This document shows positions 1-56,853 of a stretch of DNA of 56,853 nucleotides, piece by piece. A program made the translations under genes and the position numbers. The notes below the pieces were generated by a model. That model was not told the origin of the DNA and searched no databases. It saw nothing but the letters and a program-made list of their open reading frames with translations. The stretch is from IMG/VR virus record IMGVR_UViG_3300034524_000079, positions 1-56,853 of that record. One strand, given 5' to 3'. This DNA comes from a virus. Numbering within the stretch: position 1 is the first letter of the stretch; each line of letters opens with the position of its first letter.

Positions 1-71
1 TCAGAGAGTTGGTACTGAGGAGTTTGCGGGACATGGTAAAAGTTAAAGTGGTGGGTGCCGACAAAAGCTAG
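1..71 (+). CDS. 3' end of small early protein (continues from 56639)
   Basis: This is the last part of the 52-residue protein that starts at 56639 and crosses the artificial contig junction; the stop TAG is at 69-71. It converges on the minus-strand zinc-ribbon gene ending at 76, leaving only 4 bp between them. Confidence 0.8.
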   Translation, partial: RELVLRSLRDMVKVKVVGADKS

Positions 72-127
72 TGGTTTATTTGCCGAAGTTTTTCAGTGTT
101 CTCTCAAAGTCTTTCAATGCTCGGTTA
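1..127. repeat. Terminal direct repeat, left copy (circular contig overlap)
   Basis: Bases 1-127 are identical to 56727-56853. The repeat cuts through one gene (56639-56797) and part of the next (76-315), so it is not a biological end. A perfect 127-bp overlap is what a de Bruijn assembler with k=127 leaves on a closed circle. Unique genome length is therefore 56,726 bp. Confidence 0.95.
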
Positions 128-7062: not shown

Positions 7063-8025
7063 ATGGGTCAAACAAAGATTGAATGGGCTGACATCAGCTG
7101 GAACCCCGTAACGGGGTGTTCCAAAATAAGCCCCGGCTGCCAGAACTGCTATGCTGAGCGCATGTCAAAGCGCCTGGCTGGGCGGTGCGGGTACCCGGCG
7201 GACGAGCCCTTTCGGGTGACCCTGCACCATGGTAGATTGAATCAGCCTTTAGGGTGGACAAAGCCAAGCAAAGTATTTGTTTGCAGTATGAGCGATTTAT
7301 TCCATGAAGACGTGCCGGATATTTTCATTATAAACGCATTAGCGGTTATGGCCGAGGCTTCGCAGCACATATTTCTCTTGTTGACCAAAAGGCCGGAGCG
7401 TATGAAGGAGATAATGACCCACGACACCATTGCTGCTGATGTTTGGTTGCAGACTTCAACCGGTGTAAGCGCCAGCCCTTTAGTGTGGCCGCTGCCCAAT
7501 GTTTGGCTAGGCGTAACTGCCGAGAATCAAGAGTATGTAAGCAAACGGGTACCTGTTCTTTTGCAGATACCGGCAGCAGCACGGTTTGTGTCAGTGGAGC
7601 CAATGTTAGGGCCGGTGGACTTGGAGAGTATACAGTTTGACCGAAATACACAAATGAATATCCTCGAAGGGTGCGGGGTGAGTTCCAGAGCGGGCGGGCA
7701 AATGATACCAAATGCTTTTTGTGAGCCATTAAACTGGGTTATTTGCGGCGGCGAGAGCGGGCCGGGGGCAAGACCGATGCATCCGGATTGGGTGCGGGAT
7801 TTAAGGGATCAGTGCCAGGCGGCTGGGGTGCCGTTTCTATTTAAACAGTGGGGTGAATATTGTCACCCCGACCAAATGCCGCCAGAAACTTACAGGCAGG
7901 TGGATGCGGCGCACAATCTATCCGGGCATGGGAATTACAATCAACCTTGGCGAGTTGGCAAAAATAAAGCCGGTCGCTTGTTGGACGGCCAAGGGTGGAA
8001 CCAGTTTCCGGAGGTGTTCCAATGA
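7063..8025 (+). CDS. Phage Gp37/Gp68-like protein (DUF5131)
   Basis: The 320-residue product begins TKIEWADISWNPVTGCSKISPGCQNCYAERM, the family signature with a C-x6-C-x2-C cluster near residues 19-29. Later segments VFVCSMSDLFHEDVP, LLLTKRPERM and VICGGESGPGARPMHP are typical. The three-Cys cluster recalls radical-SAM enzymes, but the spacing differs from CxxxCxxC. No reaction is established to my knowledge. It shares an operon with the ASCH-like gene and overlaps the next gene. Confidence 0.88.
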   Translation: MGQTKIEWADISWNPVTGCSKISPGCQNCYAERMSKRLAGRCGYPADEPFRVTLHHGRLNQPLGWTKPSKVFVCSMSDLFHEDVPDIFIINALAVMAEASQHIFLLLTKRPERMKEIMTHDTIAADVWLQTSTGVSASPLVWPLPNVWLGVTAENQEYVSKRVPVLLQIPAAARFVSVEPMLGPVDLESIQFDRNTQMNILEGCGVSSRAGGQMIPNAFCEPLNWVICGGESGPGARPMHPDWVRDLRDQCQAAGVPFLFKQWGEYCHPDQMPPETYRQVDAAHNLSGHGNYNQPWRVGKNKAGRLLDGQGWNQFPEVFQ

Positions 8026-14077: not shown

Positions 14078-14869
14078 TTGAGCAAAACACAAAACACAAG
14101 CCTGCGCAAATCAAAGATGGGGTGCCGCCTGCCCCATGAAAGCCATGACGTGGGAGACGGGTATACTGCACCAAGCCCGGTGAAAAAATATCGACTTAGC
14201 CCGGAAGAGTTAGCTAAGTATGGCCCGATAAAGAAAGTTGAGCACCGCCGACAATTACTGACACGTGATGTACTGGTTGAAAAATTAAAAACACTGACCG
14301 TGGGTCAGGTGGCCCAGCGTCATAACATACCTGCGGTAATGGTTTTTAAGCTGGTTGAAAAGTATGGTTTGGAGCTGGACAAGAAAAACCGGTTGAAGGA
14401 GGGTGAAAGCATGGAAAATGTTGATAAATCTTTACGCAAAAATGAATTCGAGCCTTATGAGCCCAAGAAGACCCGCCTGGAAATCGCCCGGGAAAAGATT
14501 GACTTGGAGAAATATAAGAACCTAAAAGCGCAAGGGAAAACCGACAAGGATATGTATGAGGAGCTAGACATACCGGTGGATGTGTTTTACACACTCAAAA
14601 AAGAGTGGGGGATTGCTCAGACAATAGCCAAAAGTAAGCCTGATCCCAAAAACGATAAGGCTGCCGGTAAAAAGATGACGATCTCTAAGGCTATGGAGTT
14701 GCGAGAGGAATTGTGCGCTGATAGGTCTTGCATTGCGGATATTATGGATCCGGGAAAATTGGAAATATCACCAAAAGTGCGGGAACTGTTAAGTAATCAT
14801 TACGAAAAGTGCGGGGAGAGGTTGGAGCGGATCGACAAAGTTTTCGACTCCACGGAAATTGAGGTGTGA
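14078..14869 (+). CDS. Helix-turn-helix-like early protein, 263 aa
   Basis: TTG 14078 follows GGGAGGCGG. Two separate helix-turn-helix-like segments are seen: LTVGQVAQRHNIPAVMVFKLVEKYG (residues 72-96) and KTDKDMYEELDIPVDVFYTLKKEWG (about 153-177). The rest is charged. It could be a DNA-binding regulator or origin/packaging factor; no family recognised. It precedes the Tas-like gene by one small gene. Confidence 0.6.
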   Translation: MSKTQNTSLRKSKMGCRLPHESHDVGDGYTAPSPVKKYRLSPEELAKYGPIKKVEHRRQLLTRDVLVEKLKTLTVGQVAQRHNIPAVMVFKLVEKYGLELDKKNRLKEGESMENVDKSLRKNEFEPYEPKKTRLEIAREKIDLEKYKNLKAQGKTDKDMYEELDIPVDVFYTLKKEWGIAQTIAKSKPDPKNDKAAGKKMTISKAMELREELCADRSCIADIMDPGKLEISPKVRELLSNHYEKCGERLERIDKVFDSTEIEV

Positions 14870-14871
14870 GT

Positions 14872-15138
14872 ATGAACCTTAGCTTTAATTTTAACCCGGT
14901 GGATACCGTAGCGATTTACGCTGATGATCCGGAATACCAGATCGGCAAAAAGGCAGTTAAAGGCGATTATCGGCTTACTGAGCGGCAGGAGCAGGTAAAG
15001 AATATGTTTTTACACCTGGTTAGCGTGGTGCGGAGAAAAGAATTGCCGGTGAACATTGATCGGCTTCTGGACGCCACCAGGGATTATGTTCAAGAACGGA
15101 GGCTGGAGGAATATGAGTGGACTCGGAGGGTTGGCTAA
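14872..15138 (+). CDS. Hypothetical protein, 88 aa
   Basis: ATG 14872 is preferred over GTG 14866 because GAGGTG (14861-14866) then sits 5 bases upstream. It is a mixed hydrophilic protein with a C-terminal helix and no recognised motif. It overlaps the next gene (start 15113) by 26 bp, so it is the immediate operon partner of the Tas-like protein. Confidence 0.6.
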   Translation: MNLSFNFNPVDTVAIYADDPEYQIGKKAVKGDYRLTERQEQVKNMFLHLVSVVRRKELPVNIDRLLDATRDYVQERRLEEYEWTRRVG

Positions 15139-15916
15139 GGTTTACCAGGATATCCAGGGGCTCAGAGTAGCCCTTGGAAACAAAACCTGGAGCGCGGAAA
15201 ATGCGGACGGCCGGGCAGTGCCGGCGATATATGAAACAATGATTGCCCAATTAAAAGAAATGGAAGCCGGCCTTGTTAAAGAGGCAAAACAGTACCTTAA
15301 AGAGCACCCAGCATGGATGGGATTTGGTAAAGACGTAAAGGGACTGGGCCCAACGCTGGGCGCTCAACTGATCGGGTACATCGAAGATATCGGGCGCTTT
15401 GATACCGTGAGTAAGCTCTGGAAATACTGCGGCCTGGCCTGTGTGGACGGAAAGGCCGACAGGATGAGGAAGGGGCAGAAGGCGAGCTATAATCCGAAGA
15501 TCAAGAGCCTGCTTTACAACATTGGGTGTAGCTTTATCAAGACCAAGAGTCCGTACCGGCGTATCTATGACGATAAAAAGCAATACTACCGGCAAGTAAA
15601 GCAGGACCCGCAGATCATGGCAGTAACCGGTGACAATGCCGGGATAATAAACAATATTCGACAGGATAAAAAAGAGTGGCCCAGGTATCTCGCGACCGCC
15701 ATCAAGGAAGCCAAAAAGCAAGGAAAACAAAAACCCTGGACGGACAATCACGTTCACATGGCAGCCCTCAGGAAGATGGAAAAGATATTCCTTGCCCACC
15801 TCTGGGAGCAGTGGAGAATTGCCGAGGGTTTGCCAACCAGGCGGGAGTACGTGTTTGATTGCCTCGGACATACAAGTAGGTACGAAGCCAAAGATTTTAA
15901 AAAGCAAGCCAGTTAG
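15113..15916 (+). CDS. Nop/IS110-C-terminal-like protein; candidate TasA of a TIGR-Tas system
   Basis: ATG 15113 follows GGAGG. The 267-residue product has a coiled-coil helix pair (about residues 38-65) and then a Nop-like/IS110 C-terminal core: KDVKGLGPTLGAQLIGYIEDI, SKLWKYCGLA and NPKIKSLLYNIGCSF. Its C-terminal helix region reads HMAALRKMEKIFLAHLWEQW. The IS110 DEDD catalytic half is absent, as are HNH and RuvC motifs, so it cannot be a transposase or nuclease alone. Its stop codon lies in the first degenerate repeat of the adjacent array. This gene-array pair fits TasA-type RNA-guided DNA binding (established for the Tas family; applied here by inference). Confidence 0.75.
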   Translation: MSGLGGLAKVYQDIQGLRVALGNKTWSAENADGRAVPAIYETMIAQLKEMEAGLVKEAKQYLKEHPAWMGFGKDVKGLGPTLGAQLIGYIEDIGRFDTVSKLWKYCGLACVDGKADRMRKGQKASYNPKIKSLLYNIGCSFIKTKSPYRRIYDDKKQYYRQVKQDPQIMAVTGDNAGIINNIRQDKKEWPRYLATAIKEAKKQGKQKPWTDNHVHMAALRKMEKIFLAHLWEQWRIAEGLPTRREYVFDCLGHTSRYEAKDFKKQAS

Positions 15917-16342
15917 CCTTTAAAGATATGAGGACTTCTGTAAAATGCGAGCCTTACACGCCCTGAGGCCCACCTATCTTTGCGAGCCTTCGAAAAAATG
16001 AAACCTGAACAGTATTGCGAGCTGGAATTCAGATGATACCCTTCGGACCATGCGAGCTTATGGATATTTGAGGACTATATTAGTGTGCGAGCTGTGGATA
16101 CTTGTAAACTAAGTCTCTAATGCGAGCCGGAAATAAAACTTGAAATCGATACTACTTGCGAGCCCGGGTAAAAATAAGTATTGGATGCTTGTGCGAGCTT
16201 GGCAATATTTTTGATACAATAACAAACTGCGAGCTACCGTATTAGTGAGAACTTGGGAAGGCTGCGAGCTGCTGTGATTTCGAGATCTTATCATGAATGC
16301 GAGCCTAACTTCAATCGATGTGAATGTAAGAAATGTGCGAGA
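15911..16342 (+). repeat. TIGR-like array: 11 exact TGCGAGC repeats plus degenerate ends, 35-36 bp period
   Basis: TGCGAGC starts at 15946, 15981, 16016, 16051, 16086, 16121, 16157, 16192, 16228, 16263 and 16298. A degenerate AGTTAGC (15911) opens the array and TGCGAGA (16336) closes it. Steps are 35, 35, 35, 35, 35, 35, 36, 35, 36, 35, 35 and 38. About 18 bp after each repeat start lies a second loose box: TGAGGAC, TGAGGCC, TGAAACC, TGATACC, TGAGGAC, TGTAAAC, TGAAATC, TAAGTAT, TGATACA, TGAGAAC, CGAGATC. Each unit thus holds two unique spacers of about 9-11 nt between 'edge' and 'loop' repeats, as in TIGR arrays that give 36-nt guide RNAs. Confidence 0.85.
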
Positions 16343-16425
16343 CCCGGCCACACAAACCACGAAAGGAGGATGCTCCGACGGAAGACGTATAAACGCTGTT
16401 CATGAGCTGGCCGGGTTTTATTTCT
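16342..16425 (+). terminator. Structured 3' end of the array transcript
   Basis: ACCCGGCCA (16342-16350) pairs perfectly with TGGCCGGGT (16408-16416), followed by TTTATTTCT. The 57-nt inside can form GGAG-GATG-CTCC and CGT-ATAA-ACG hairpins, so this is a multibranched RNA with a terminator-like tail. It begins inside the last degenerate repeat, so it likely ends or stabilises the guide-array transcript. It resembles no riboswitch I know. Confidence 0.55.
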
Positions 16426-48277: not shown

Positions 48278-48994
48278 CTAAAGGTGGCGGTAAATATCCT
48301 TACGGACCTGCTCCAGCGTCACAACCTTAAACCGAAGCTTCTCTTTGTTACACTTTTTTATCGTTTCGCTCACAACCTCTGGACGATCCGTGAGCACGAC
48401 CACCTTCGGGAACCGGTATTTCCCTTCTTCATTTTTCTTAGCCCACCATTGCTGGGTCCATGCTTTACTCAAAAAGTACGACGAGTATAACTTCACTTTA
48501 TCAAACTGGTTATTGCTATCGGCCCGGTCTACCTCCACAAAGTAAGGCTGTAGCACTTCCTTTGCCGTATTCTTCAGCACCAGCAACGCATCACTGACCA
48601 GCCTATTCTTCTCTCCCCACTCCTGAAAGTATTCGCGCACGAACGCCTGGATCTTAAACCAGCTTTTCCGCTGGGTGACCAGTGACACATAAACCCAGTT
48701 CACCAGCACCGCATGCTCCATCTTTTGATTACGCCTTCCAGTAAAGTATGCATACTGTTCATCCAGACCGGTCCTTGCCCGTTTCAGCTTCTTATCCTTA
48801 TATAATTTGGTTAACCTCTGCACTGCCTTCGCCGGTGTCTTGTGGTCAGCAAAAAACAATGCGTGAATCTGGTCCCGGGTGTAAGGTCCGGATTCAGAAA
48901 TCAGCTGCACGATTTTCTTATCCCGCTCCATGCCCAGGCGAACAAAGTCACGCGGGTCTGGTTTTACCTTCTCCTGCGCTATCACCATTTCCAT
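48278..48994 (-). CDS. Replication-relaxation family protein
   Basis: The 238-residue product has an N-terminal winged helix (RDKKIVQLISESGPYTRDQIHALFF; AVQRLTKLYKDKKLKRART) and a nuclease-like C-terminal half (PYFVEVDRADSNNQFDKVKLYSSYF; FPKVVVLTDRP), the pattern of Replic_Relax proteins of Gram-positive plasmids and ICEs. It is unusual in a cos phage. It follows FtsK-like and membrane genes in one minus-strand operon. Confidence 0.82.
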   Translation of the reverse strand: MEMVIAQEKVKPDPRDFVRLGMERDKKIVQLISESGPYTRDQIHALFFADHKTPAKAVQRLTKLYKDKKLKRARTGLDEQYAYFTGRRNQKMEHAVLVNWVYVSLVTQRKSWFKIQAFVREYFQEWGEKNRLVSDALLVLKNTAKEVLQPYFVEVDRADSNNQFDKVKLYSSYFLSKAWTQQWWAKKNEEGKYRFPKVVVLTDRPEVVSETIKKCNKEKLRFKVVTLEQVRKDIYRHL

Positions 48995-49191
48995 CCCCTT
49001 TCTAAGTCCTCAAATATGGAGTAACAGGCCGGCTCTTTGCCCAAGTCCAAACTGCTGCACTGCGGATTTTTGCCCTGAATCAAATACCTTTCCTCTCTTA
49101 TCGCCTCCGACCGGTCATGCCTCACTTTATTGCCTAGGGACTGGCCCAGGTGCTTCGCCCCAAGTTTTGCCATCCGGTTTAAGATTCCCAT
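48982..49191 (-). CDS. Small basic protein, 69 aa
   Basis: ATG at 49191 follows AGGAGG. The N terminus is amphipathic and basic (GILNRMAKLGAKHLGQSLGNKVRHDRSE) and the C terminus has two Cys (CSSLDLGKEPACYSIFEDLE). It overlaps the replication-relaxation gene by 13 bp. No family recognised. Confidence 0.65.
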   Translation of the reverse strand: MGILNRMAKLGAKHLGQSLGNKVRHDRSEAIREERYLIQGKNPQCSSLDLGKEPACYSIFEDLERGWKW

Positions 49192-49306
49192 AATCAACCT
49201 CCTAACTAGCGAATGAGATTTTTGCGCTGCGCTCTTACTTCTATCCCGTCATTTCCCTATAGTTTCGTTTCCCTCATCCTTATTATTACTCGCCTTAGGG
49301 TTCAAA

Positions 49307-49352
49307 AACGTATGCTGTTATAACGGGGTTTAAAACGTATCAACGAACGTAT
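49307..49352. repeat. Three AACGTAT direct repeats
   Basis: AACGTAT begins at 49307, 49334 and 49346, the last touching the ftsK-like stop. The 160-bp gap 49192-49351 holds no gene. Given flanking FtsK and replication-relaxation genes, these could be plasmid-type iterons, oriT elements or operator sites. Confidence 0.5.
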
Positions 49353-50485
49353 TAAGGGCAAATCTCGATGTCCTCCGGGACGGGATCCGGCTCCCACGTG
49401 GACAACTCGGTGGCCGTGGCAGGGATTTTGGACAAGGTTTTCTGCACCCCTTCAGGTGCCTTCAAAAACATAGTCTGCACTTCCCGGGACTTGTTCCCAA
49501 ATCGGTATATTGCCCTCCCTGGAACCGTGGGCAAGTAAGCAGCCTGCGGACCATCCAGGATGATTTCACTATTTTTGCGGTCAGCCGTCCGGAAAGAAAT
49601 TCGCGCCGTAAATAAGGCCCTGGTATCCCCGTCGATGACCTTCGTGCTAGGCCTCTGGGTGGCGGCCACAATACTGATACCCAGGGCCCGGGCCAATCTA
49701 ACCAACCGGTCTAAAATATCCCAAGCCTTTTCATCCCGAAGCTCCGCAATTTCATCGATGACCACCACGATATACGGTAGCTGCTCCCCTTCCCAGTCCT
49801 GCACCTTCACCACTCTGTTTTCCAGGAGCTCCATTCTCCGATCCATTTCTTCCTCAACCTGCTTAAGCACCTGAAGCGCTCCCTGCTCAGTGTGAACGCA
49901 AGTGGCGTGATTCCGGTACCACGCAAACTCCAACCGCTTCAAGTCAATGATATACACCACCACATTAGCCCGGAGAAGGGTGCAAATAGCTTGGTGCAGC
50001 CAATTACTTTTGCCGGCACCGGAACCACCACCCAGGAGCAAGTGTGGGGCGTCGGCTAGGTCCAACATGATGAGCCCTTCCCGACCGTAACCCACCGGCA
50101 CCGGCTGGAGCATATTGTTGACCTCAACAAAATGGTATCGGTAAAAGTTTTTTATCTGCCCGGTGAACACCCGGAGAAGCAATGTACCGTGCCGCGGTTC
50201 AATCTCCACCTCACCTCCAAGTGACCAGGCGAGGGAATGTTTTTTGGCCCGGAAATGGAGATCCGAAAGGCCGTTTGGTAGGTGTAAGAGTAGGCTAAAA
50301 CCGTAACTTTCTTTTTGCTCCTGGAGCACTATAGGGTATAGTAGTTGCCCGGACTGCGCTTTGACATAAAGTTTGTGATTATGCCAGATGTCCCGAAGTC
50401 CATGCGCTGCGCCGGTGGTTTTTAGCTTCCGCTTTTCCTTTGCCCGCTTATCCATGTACTTTAAAACCTCCGCCAAGCTACTCAT
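49352..50485 (-). CDS. FtsK/SpoIIIE-type DNA translocase
   Basis: ATG at 50485 follows GAGGTG; the upstream extension to 50545 is a shadow of the previous gene. The 377-residue product has Walker A (LGGGSGAGKSN, residues 151-161), VVYIIDLKRLEFAWY, Walker B (YIVVVIDEIAEL) and AATQRPS, all FtsK motifs, without gamma domain. Similar proteins act as coupling pumps on ICEs and plasmids. In a phage it could partition or mobilise the circular form. Confidence 0.88.
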   Translation of the reverse strand: MSSLAEVLKYMDKRAKEKRKLKTTGAAHGLRDIWHNHKLYVKAQSGQLLYPIVLQEQKESYGFSLLLHLPNGLSDLHFRAKKHSLAWSLGGEVEIEPRHGTLLLRVFTGQIKNFYRYHFVEVNNMLQPVPVGYGREGLIMLDLADAPHLLLGGGSGAGKSNWLHQAICTLLRANVVVYIIDLKRLEFAWYRNHATCVHTEQGALQVLKQVEEEMDRRMELLENRVVKVQDWEGEQLPYIVVVIDEIAELRDEKAWDILDRLVRLARALGISIVAATQRPSTKVIDGDTRALFTARISFRTADRKNSEIILDGPQAAYLPTVPGRAIYRFGNKSREVQTMFLKAPEGVQKTLSKIPATATELSTWEPDPVPEDIEICP

Positions 50486-50741
50486 TGCCCAACACCTCAA
50501 ATAAACGTATTGCGTCACTGAGCTGGCCGAAATCGTACCCGTCAATCATAAACCCGTTAATAATCTTGAGCCCCTGGAAGAACGCGAGCAGGATAATAAT
50601 TACCATCACTGCGCTGGCCGCTCCGGTGAAAAGTTTATCCAGCTCACCTTTGCCGAACATATGCAGAAAGATGGATACTACCATGACGATTACAGCGATT
50701 AGGAAGGCAACAGTAAACAGGATCAGGCCCACCTTAAGCAT
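50478..50741 (-). CDS. Membrane protein, 87 aa
   Basis: ATG at 50741 follows AAAGGGG then GGTGAG. Two membrane helices (VGLILFTVAFLIAVIVMVVSIFL; AASAVMVIIILLAFFQGL) are followed by a polar tail. It overlaps the FtsK-like start by 8 bp, suggesting a membrane partner of the pump. Confidence 0.72.
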   Translation of the reverse strand: MLKVGLILFTVAFLIAVIVMVVSIFLHMFGKGELDKLFTGAASAVMVIIILLAFFQGLKIINGFMIDGYDFGQLSDAIRLFEVLGNE

Positions 50742-51690: not shown

Positions 51691-51890
51691 AGTTGTTGCA
51701 ATTAGGGTAAGTAAGTGGGATAATTAGTCCGGCAGGAATGAAAAAGCTGGTGCCCTTGGTGCCCAAATTGGTGCCCATGGTGCCGAAAATGCGGGTAAAA
51801 ATGGTGAGTAGGGTAAAAACGGAAAATGGCGAAAATGCAGAAATGACGGGCTGTTTAAGGTTTCTGCGGGGTTAATAAAATTGCTTACCC

Positions 51891-51940
51891 TCAGCTTCCC
51901 AAGCTGAGGGCTGAGGGTTCGATCCCCTTCACCCGCTCCA
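51891..51940 (+). other. attP: attP core, identical to the 3' half of tRNA-Gly(CCC)
   Basis: The 50 bp fold as tRNA positions 27-76: anticodon stem TCAGC/GCTGA with loop TTCCCAA (anticodon CCC), 5-nt variable loop, T-arm GAGGG/CCCTT with loop TTCGATC, acceptor strand CACCCGC, T73 and CCA. The 5' half of a tRNA is missing. Phages with tRNA attB sites carry this part so that integration restores the gene. It lies 24 bp from the integrase stop. Confidence 0.92.
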
Positions 51941-51950
51941 ATAAAATCAA

Positions 51951-51989
51951 GGCCTCCGAGGACCTACTTGATCCTCCGGAGGCCTTTTT
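51951..51989 (+). terminator. Terminator hairpin between attP and integrase
   Basis: GGCCTCCG (51951-51958) pairs with CGGAGGCC (51977-51984), extended imperfectly inside, followed by five T. It includes the integrase stop and would shield the integrase gene from plus-strand transcription. Confidence 0.85.
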
Positions 51990-53259
51990 GGTGCCCATTT
52001 GGTGCCCGAGTGCCTTCATTTTCTTTCTTGGTGCCCATAACATCGTCAAGCCTGTTGATAGCCTGGCGCTTCAATTTGTCGGCTACGTGAGCATAAATAT
52101 CTGCTGTTGTACCATACTTGGAGTGACCTAAGAGTTCCTGGATTACTTTCATGTCCTCACCCAGCTCCAGGAGTCTGGATGCAAAGGTGTGCCTGAGAGC
52201 ATGTGGTGAGATGTGGTTAAGGTCGAGCTTGTCCCTTAACTGCTCAAATGAGCGGCTGAGATTTCGAGGCCATATATAAGTGCCGGCTCTGCTCGGGAAC
52301 ACCATAGAATCTTTTTGATATTTGTTCTTTTCCTGGAGGTGCTCTCTGTGTTTTAATAGAAATGTAACTACCATAGTTGGAAGTGGTATGGTCCGCCTGC
52401 TTTTTGCTGTTTTAGGCTCCCCGACAACAAGACCCTGGCCTTTAACAGCTACAACTGATCTTACGATTTGAATATATCTCTCATTTTTAAGGTTCTTTAT
52501 TTCTTGTTCAACAATTCTTACTTCTTCAATTGAAGCTTTATTTTTAGTGAGCTCCCAGAGCTCTTTTTCTTTTTCTAGTTGGGCAACATAAGCATCTATG
52601 GCAGGGTCTACATCCTCCCAGTGCAACCCGATTACTTCTTCCCGGCGCAGGCCGGTGCCCAGCATGGTAACGAAAGCGGCACCAAGTTTATGGTCAGCCA
52701 AAGCATTTAAAAGCTTGTCCTGTTCCTCCACTGTCATTATTCTTTTTTCTTTATATTTAAGCGGCGGTCTAGTGGTGGCTTCACAAGGGTTAAACTTAAT
52801 AATACGGTTTTTAATGGCCTGTTTAAATGCACCGTTAAAAAGCTGATGAACCTGGTGCACAGCTCTAGATGATTTTCCGTCTTCAATGAGTGAGTTGTAT
52901 AATCGTTGAAGATGCTCTGGTCGGAGTTTTTGAAGAGGAACGTTGCCTAAAGTAGGCCTAATAAAATGGTCAATGTAGTAAGCATAAAGCTCATACGTAC
53001 TTGGACGCAGAGTAGGTTTTTTATACTCCCTTAACCATTCTTCCATCCACTCAATCACGGTAATTTTGTCAATATCAACGTGGGTACCCTGTTCAAGTTC
53101 AGCAATGATTAGAGCCATGATATTTTTAGCTTCTGACTCCCGCCCGGTATGATACCGAACAATGCGCTTTCTTTTGCCGGTGACCGGGTCCTTGCCTGCC
53201 TCCACAACGATTTTCCATTTGTTTTTTGTGTTTTTTACTTTTCTAATGTGGCCGGCCAC
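51964..53259 (-). CDS. int: Tyrosine recombinase (integrase)
   Basis: The 431-residue product has an AP2-like arm-binding N terminus (1-60), a SAM-like core-binding domain (66-165) and a catalytic domain with Arg205 (TGLRREEV), Lys283/286, His353/Arg356 (HALRHTF), His379 (LLGHS) and Tyr389. An insert of about 40 charged helical residues (222-262) lengthens the catalytic domain. ATG at 53259. It joins attP to a host tRNA-Gly gene. Its last codons contain three arm-type repeats. Confidence 0.96.
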
Positions 53260-56638: not shown

Positions 56639-56797
56639 ATGCCGGAAGCACGACAGTTCACGGCAAAGGTTAGGTTCGATATGAGCGGCTTGATTGAGAC
56701 CCTGAAAGTTGCAAGGAAGGCCACGGTCAGAGAGTTGGTACTGAGGAGTTTGCGGGACATGGTAAAAGTTAAAGTGGTGGGTGCCGACAAAAGCTAG
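56639..56797 (+). CDS. Small early protein, 52 aa, spanning the contig junction
   Basis: ATG 56639 follows TTCAGGAGGTG. The product is basic (KVRFDMSGLIETLKVARKATVRELVLRSLRDMVKV) with a helix that could bind nucleic acid. Its 3' end is repeated at window start. The 73-bp gap before it (56566-56638) holds no gene. Confidence 0.7.
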   Translation: MPEARQFTAKVRFDMSGLIETLKVARKATVRELVLRSLRDMVKVKVVGADKS

Positions 56798-56853
56798 TGG
56801 TTTATTTGCCGAAGTTTTTCAGTGTTCTCTCAAAGTCTTTCAATGCTCGGTTA
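56727..56853. repeat. Terminal direct repeat, right copy
   Basis: Exact copy of bases 1-127; see that entry. Together they show the molecule is circular or circularly permuted. Confidence 0.95.

What the first reader, a model, noticed from the sequence alone, without database searches (positions are those of the whole stretch)
15113..16342. Candidate TIGR-Tas RNA-guided system (nuclease-less TasA type) in a contractile-tailed phage
Seen: a 267-residue protein with the Nop/IS110-C-terminal core but no DEDD, HNH or RuvC motif, and right after it 11 exact TGCGAGC repeats 35-36 bp apart. Each interval is split at its centre by a loose TGARRMC box into two unique spacers of about 9-11 nt. Known: TIGR-Tas systems pair a Nop-domain Tas protein with arrays of alternating edge and loop repeats giving 36-nt guide RNAs that bind DNA by two spacers; they are reported from phages and parasitic bacteria. 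Inference: this is a TasA-type system that binds rather than cuts DNA, perhaps silencing rival phage or host genes.
Basis: partly seen in the sequence, partly recalled or inferred. Interest (0 to 1): 0.97.

Follow-up and report, generated by a model that had tools for sequence, protein, structure and literature searches.

The report
TIGR-TasA guide-RNA locus in temperate phage
A complete temperate phage genome carries a small RNA-guided DNA-binding system of the recently described TIGR-Tas kind (nuclease-free TasA type) with 12 paired guides; it is a genuine new member of a known kind, its targets are still unknown, and none of them lies in the phage's own genome.

Summary
The 267-aa protein at 15113-15916 is a stand-alone Nop-domain Tas protein. 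It scores 188.6 bits against NCBIfam TIGR_Tas_endo (cut-off 100), and its AlphaFold model matches TasR and TasH in the 11 best PDB hits. Directly after it lies a 12-unit dual-repeat TIGR array: edge TGCGAGCY, loop TGARRMCY, mostly 35-nt units, ending with a truncated edge plus a terminator-like hairpin.

The window is a complete circular phage genome of about 56.7 kb, temperate, with a contractile tail. About 30 related loci carry the same kind of array. The nearest (L001, 72% identity) shares the edge repeat and a small gene coupled to tasA, but no spacers.

Scanning the guides with the published two-strand rule found no target in the phage's own genome or in 2.9 Mb of phage DNA beyond mis-paired controls.

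A by-product: the residue at TasA position 96 predicts the first base of box D. F goes with U in 13 of 13 arrays and A goes with A in 20 of 20, including 14 of 14 not used to find it. New member of a known kind; mechanism by analogy, targets unknown.

The parts
15113..15916 (+). tasA: 267-aa solo Nop-domain Tas protein, no nuclease domain
   Evidence: NCBIfam NF052498 188.6 bits (cut-off 100); phrog_4285 E 3.7e-48; PDB 9mty E 1.8e-27; AlphaFold model pLDDT 83, Foldseek 9mty E 7e-12
15398..15400 (+). codon of TasA F96 (RFDTVSKLW), the residue that covaries with the first base of box D
   Evidence: F with U 13/13 arrays, A with A 20/20; tree test
15593..15724 (+). in-frame insertion of about 44 aa in TasA (residues about 161-204), absent in L001; low model confidence at 167-182
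   Evidence: alignments, model
14866..15138 (+). small gene (88-90 aa, 'p90') overlapping the tasA start; conserved only in the nearest relative L001 (50% identity)
15911..15945 (+). unit 0: degenerate 5' edge (AGTTAGCC, overlaps tasA stop codon), spacer A, loop TGAGGACT, spacer B
15946..16335 (+). TIGR array, 11 units with exact TGCGAGC edges (35-36 nt; last unit 38), loop TGARRMCY, two unique spacers each
16336..16342 (+). 3' truncated edge repeat TGCGAGA
16339..16419 (+). terminator-like hairpin after the array (12-bp stem 16339-16350/16408-16419, then U-rich tail)
   Evidence: fold -31.5 kcal/mol, z -3.05; loop is about 57 nt, longer than a classical intrinsic terminator
15919..15946 (+). 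weak sigma-70-like match just before the first full edge (TTTAAA-16-TAAAAT)
   Evidence: consensus scan only, 9 of 12

Best explanation
A TIGR-TasA locus carried by a temperate contractile-tailed phage. The array is transcribed, probably with p90 and tasA, and cut within each edge repeat into 12 tigRNAs of about 35-36 nt. A TasA dimer holds one tigRNA through the two box C/D pairs, one in the edge and one in the loop. Spacer A then pairs with one DNA strand and spacer B with the other, opening and bending an 18-20 bp site without cutting it. Bound sites would be blocked for transcription, replication or packaging, most likely in DNA of other mobile elements or the host, not in the phage itself. 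Shown here: the protein family and fold, the array anatomy, conservation of locus organisation, absence of a nuclease domain, absence of self-targets at 16 or more of 18 matches. Inferred from TasR/TasH/FpTasA biochemistry: processing, dimer, two-strand pairing, bending. Inferred without direct support: what is targeted and why.
For: NCBIfam TIGR_Tas_endo above cut-off. TasR/TasH are the 11 best structure matches, then IS110, then weakly Nop5. Array significance. The array directly follows tasA in the relative L001 (19 units, same TGCGAGCT edge, own spacers) and arrays lie beside about 30 further Tas genes. Box D is the same in edge and loop of an array: 17 AG/AG, 8 TG/TG, 1 CG/CG against 1 mismatch (Fisher p 1.2e-7 for A against not-A, not corrected for kinship); the window is TG/TG, as expected if both repeats meet identical protomers of a dimer. 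TasA residue 96 tracks that base: F with U 13/13, A with A 20/20, 14/14 in loci not used to find it, and the same way at all 3 independent switches on supported branches. The solved TasR (9mty) also has F here and its box D is UG. Processing of TasA arrays and two-strand targeting are published for the family (PMC12045711).
Against: No target was found, so function rests on analogy. Window units are mostly 35 nt instead of 36, box C is CY instead of CCR (CCR is the commonest in other arrays), and four of 12 loops are degenerate, so some units may be decayed. No expression data. The 44-aa insertion could affect function.
Confidence: 0.93

Rival explanations
1. The guides regulate the phage's own genes: TasA is an RNA-programmed repressor of its own genome, for example in the lysogeny switch.
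For: TasA does not cut, and in many of these loci the module sits among early replication genes.
Against: The genome is complete. Best self-matches are 13-15 of 18 for the 12 guides, the same as mis-paired and wrongly oriented controls. Pooled guides of other loci show no target excess in the phage DNA scanned either.
Confidence: 0.06
2. TasA aids recombination or integration: guides bend DNA at attachment or recombination sites as an RNA-guided helper of the integrase or of the resolvase encoded next to it.
For: Suggested for TasA in PMC12045711 from the 180-degree bend. The first downstream gene is a Holliday-junction-resolvase-like protein in the window (RusA-like), and the first sizeable downstream gene of L001 is resolvase-like too (a different RusA-like family).
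Against: No guide matches the region around the tRNA-Gly/integrase (part of the negative scan). Other TIGR loci have other neighbours. Twelve different guides are more than one attachment site needs.
Confidence: 0.08
3. TasA works with the coupled small protein p90 as an effector complex, so the locus may do more than bind.
For: p90 overlaps the tasA start in both members of this clade and is conserved at 50%.
Against: Found nowhere else in IMG/VR or the phage records; no family hit; only a low-confidence model. Overlapping genes are ordinary in phages.
Confidence: 0.12
4. A decaying or non-functional remnant.
For: Four degenerate loops and irregular unit lengths.
Against: Intact ORF with all conserved Nop motifs, 11 perfect edges, intact ends and hairpin.
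Confidence: 0.06

Closest known systems
TIGR-TasA (for example FpTIGR of Flavonifractor plautii; Faure et al. 2025, PMC12045711)
   Same: Solo Nop-domain protein, dual-repeat array with edge and loop repeats, two short spacers per unit, truncated first and last edges, terminator, phage setting
   Different: 35-nt units instead of 36, box C reduced to CY, about 44-aa insertion in TasA, coupled p90 gene; no experiment done on this locus
TIGR-TasR (TaTasR, PDB 9mty) and TIGR-TasH (Salicola phage CGphi29, PDB 21kl/9w04)
   Same: Same Nop fold (Foldseek E 7e-12 and 8e-11) and same array principle; TaTasR has UG box D and F at the residue-96 position, as here
   Different: They carry an N-terminal RuvC or HNH nuclease and cut DNA; the window protein has none
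L001, IMGVR_UViG_3300033149_002110
   Same: 72% identity to the window TasA, same TGCGAGCT edge, same coupled p90 gene, resolvase-like gene downstream
   Different: No spacer in common, no insertion in TasA, 19 units
IS110/IS621 bridge-RNA recombinases
   Same: Share the Nop-like RNA-binding C-terminal domain
   Different: NF033542 29.7 bits against a cut-off of 140; no N-terminal DEDD domain; array instead of bridge RNA
Nop5 / box C/D sRNP
   Same: Distant fold relation and box C/D logic
   Different: Foldseek E 0.8 only; no fibrillarin-recruiting N-terminal domain in the protein
CRISPR arrays
   Same: Interspaced repeats with unique spacers
   Different: Repeats of 7-8 nt, two alternating kinds, spacers of 9-10 nt, no Cas-like hit for the proteins scanned

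Membership tests
TIGR-Tas | Nop-domain protein of the Tas family | tested here: met
   NF052498 188.6 bits, cut-off 100; Foldseek TasR/TasH ranks 1-11
TIGR-Tas | Adjacent array of two alternating 8-12-nt repeats with two short spacers | tested here: met
   Edge 8 nt, loop 8 nt, spacers mostly 9-10 nt
TIGR-Tas | Edge and loop share box D and box C motifs | tested here: met
   TG...CY in both; box D covariation across 27 arrays
TIGR-Tas | Truncated first and last edge repeat, then terminator | tested here: met
   hairpin loop longer than usual
TIGR-Tas | 36-nt unit / 36-nt processed tigRNA | tested here: inconclusive
   DNA units are 35 nt (8) or 36 nt (2) between the 11 exact edges; RNA not measurable here
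TIGR-Tas | tigRNA-guided, two-strand DNA binding | not testable with these tools
   Needs biochemistry; target search negative
TasA subtype | No HNH or RuvC nuclease domain | tested here: met
   267 aa, Nop core only; Pfam and NCBIfam show no nuclease
IS110 transposase | N-terminal DEDD domain and score above the family cut-off | tested here: not met
   29.7 of 140 bits; match confined to the C-terminal part
CRISPR-Cas | 25-36-nt repeats with Cas proteins | tested here: not met
   Repeats 7-8 nt; no Cas-like hit in PADLOC or NCBIfam for the ten proteins scanned in each, TasA and its upstream neighbours included
Box C/D snoRNP (Nop5) | Close Nop5 structural match | tested here: not met
   Foldseek 1nt2 E 0.8, prob 0.66

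The most novel reading that the evidence does not exclude
The window and L001 represent a distinct TIGR-TasA subtype: 35-nt guides, shortened box C (CY), and a translationally coupled partner protein (p90) that acts with TasA as an effector, giving the nuclease-free protein a second activity.
Probability: 0.12. Interest if true: 0.65.

Novelty: new member of a known kind. Interest (0 to 1): 0.45.

Why it matters
The role of nuclease-free TasA and the targets of its guides are stated as open in the founding paper (PMC12045711). This is a complete temperate phage genome with an intact 12-guide locus, so own-genome targets could be examined exhaustively, and none were found under the published rule. 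The comparison also gives a testable protein-RNA code: the residue at position 96 appears to read the first base of box D. That would allow Tas proteins to be paired with arrays by sequence and repeat specificity to be switched.

Tried and rejected
1) Self-targets: 12 guides x own genome, model A + 0-2 nt + rc(B); best 15/18, equal to mis-paired and wrong-orientation controls.
2) Targets of 297 guides from all arrays in 2.9 Mb of phage DNA: 0 at 18/18, 6 at 17/18, against 5, 5 and 6 (at 17 or more) for mis-paired guides. An apparent excess of 13 for 'A then B on one strand' came from redundant phage records and duplicated units.
3) Exact targets of guides 3 and 9 in all IMG/VR contigs: none.
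4) Ornatilinea apprima (isolate with a TIGR locus): only a 15-nt match, E 1.3, and one guide absent from 150 class relatives.
5) A conserved accessory gene beside TIGR loci: neighbours are mixed (replication, methyltransferase, HNH), with no family in more than 2 of 74 proteins.
6) p90 relatives: none beyond L001; model too poor for a fold search.
7) More loci for the residue-96 rule from 400 Chloroflexota and 380 Patescibacteria: one Chloroflexota genome over the cut-off (already known), and the Patescibacteria hits lack the motif and recognisable 36-nt arrays apart from the one already known.
9) First TasA scan of genome contigs with a two-sequence alignment found nothing.

Full report
WHAT IS THERE. 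The window is a complete circular phage genome: its first 127 bases recur exactly as its last 127, giving about 56.7 kb. It encodes terminase, portal, major head protein, tail sheath, tape measure and baseplate proteins, a tyrosine integrase and repressors, so it is temperate with a contractile tail. Its terminase is closest to a Paenibacillus phage (69% identity), which suggests a Firmicutes host; the host itself is not known.

At 15113-15916 lies a 267-aa protein. It scores 188.6 bits against NCBIfam NF052498 TIGR_Tas_endo (curated cut-off 100) and only 29.7 against IS110 (cut-off 140). By sequence it matches the solved TasR 9mty (E 1.8e-27) and TasH (E 3.5e-14). Its AlphaFold model (pLDDT 83) matches TasR/TasH in the 11 best PDB hits, then IS621/ISCro4, and Nop5 only weakly. 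It has no nuclease domain, which makes it a TasA.

THE ARRAY. Eleven exact TGCGAGC copies spaced 35-36 nt run from 15946 to 16304, with a truncated copy at 16336. A degenerate first edge overlaps the tasA stop codon, giving 12 units. The longest chain of any heptamer at such spacing in 60 simulated sequences was 2, against 11 here. The central loop box at offset 18 exceeds all 2000 shuffles, in the window and separately in L001. After the last edge comes a strong hairpin with a U-rich tail. This is the published TIGR layout: truncated edge, (edge, spacer A, loop, spacer B) repeated, truncated edge, terminator (PMC12045711). Two details differ from most other arrays seen here: the units are mostly 35 nt, and box C is CY rather than CCR.

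RELATIVES. The nearest is L001 (72% identity over the alignment), with the same edge repeat and 19 units directly behind its tas gene. About 30 further viral or MAG loci, and the isolate Ornatilinea apprima, carry arrays. Phages that share RecT and early genes with the window lack tas altogether. One of them (G005) keeps several flanking genes in similar order but has neither p90, tasA, array nor RusA. TIGR is therefore an accessory module in this phage lineage. p90 (14866-15138) overlaps the start of tasA and is conserved only in L001.

HOW IT MOST LIKELY WORKS. From the family's biochemistry, tigRNAs of one unit each are held by a Tas dimer; spacer A and spacer B pair with opposite strands of an 18-20 bp site with no PAM. 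From the reported 8-nt 3' overhang and the 'C-5' rule I derived that the target reads 5'-A-(0-2 nt)-rc(B)-3' on one strand. A nuclease-free TasA would bind and probably bend such a site. What is bound is unknown.

I tested self-targeting over the whole genome: the best matches are 13-15 of 18, the same as mis-paired and wrongly oriented controls. For 297 guides from all arrays in 2.9 Mb of phage DNA there were 0 matches at 18/18 and 6 at 17/18, against 5, 5 and 6 for mis-paired guides. Two guides had no exact target in IMG/VR. The guides therefore do not address the phage itself or the relatives sampled. The natural targets lie elsewhere, for instance in the host or in unsampled elements, or pairing is looser than modelled.

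A PROTEIN-RNA CODE. Across arrays, box D has the same first base in edge and loop (17 AG/AG, 8 TG/TG, 1 CG/CG, 1 mixed), as the founding paper also observed in general terms. I asked which TasA position tracks this base. Position 96 (F in RFDTVSKLW) separated the groups almost completely. Counting all loci, F goes with U in 13 of 13 and A with A in 20 of 20. This includes 14 of 14 loci not used to find the rule, among them the Salicola TasH array, whose AG was predicted before it was read. On a tree built without that column the residue switched 4 times. Box D switched the same way in all 3 independent pairs on supported branches, too few for significance by sign test. Loci with other residues (C, V, P, S) are not decided by the rule. 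The solved TasR has F here and UG as box D. This code is my inference from covariation. The text and figure legends of the paper that I read do not mention it; its figures and supplement were not seen.

NOVELTY. The kind of system is known since 2025; this locus is a new member with small departures (35-nt units, box C, insertion, p90).

CAVEATS. No RNA or binding data exist for this locus. Spacer borders are uncertain in four units. Collections are incomplete, and the host genome could not be searched.

Noticed in passing
window 1-127 and 56727-56853: Exact 127-bp direct terminal repeat: the record is a complete circular assembly of about 56.7 kb.
   Followed up: yes
L028 3860-4574 versus L031 4560-5117: Two closely related phages (blocks 89-94% identical): the array next to tas is largely replaced (16-21% divergence plus indels), while a second array downstream differs by only 1-3%, less than most flanking DNA. 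Spacer turnover in one place and conservation in another.
   Followed up: partly
L020 4709-5179 versus L022 4709-5100: Flanks 90-92% identical up to the first edge repeat and after the array, but nearly all spacers differ: TIGR spacers change faster than the rest of the phage.
   Followed up: partly
window 15593-15724: About 44-aa in-frame insertion in TasA at a place where other Tas proteins also vary in length; TaTasR shows none there in the sequence alignment.
   Followed up: partly
window 48278-50545 (-): Replication-relaxation protein and FtsK/TraB-like ATPase genes, more typical of conjugative elements or plasmids, inside the complete phage genome.
   Followed up: no
window 51866-51940: tRNA-Gly (CCC) gene directly beside the integrase 51964-53259, possibly the attachment site.
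   Followed up: no
window 7063-8025: DUF5131 / radical-SAM-like protein that matches PADLOC candidate defence families PDC-M41B and PDC-M30B.
   Followed up: no
L051-L061 and phage records such as NC_028874 (Pari): 76 Mycobacterium phage records carry a distant tasA-like gene, some annotated as 'transposase', without a recognisable dual-repeat array nearby in those checked.
   Followed up: partly
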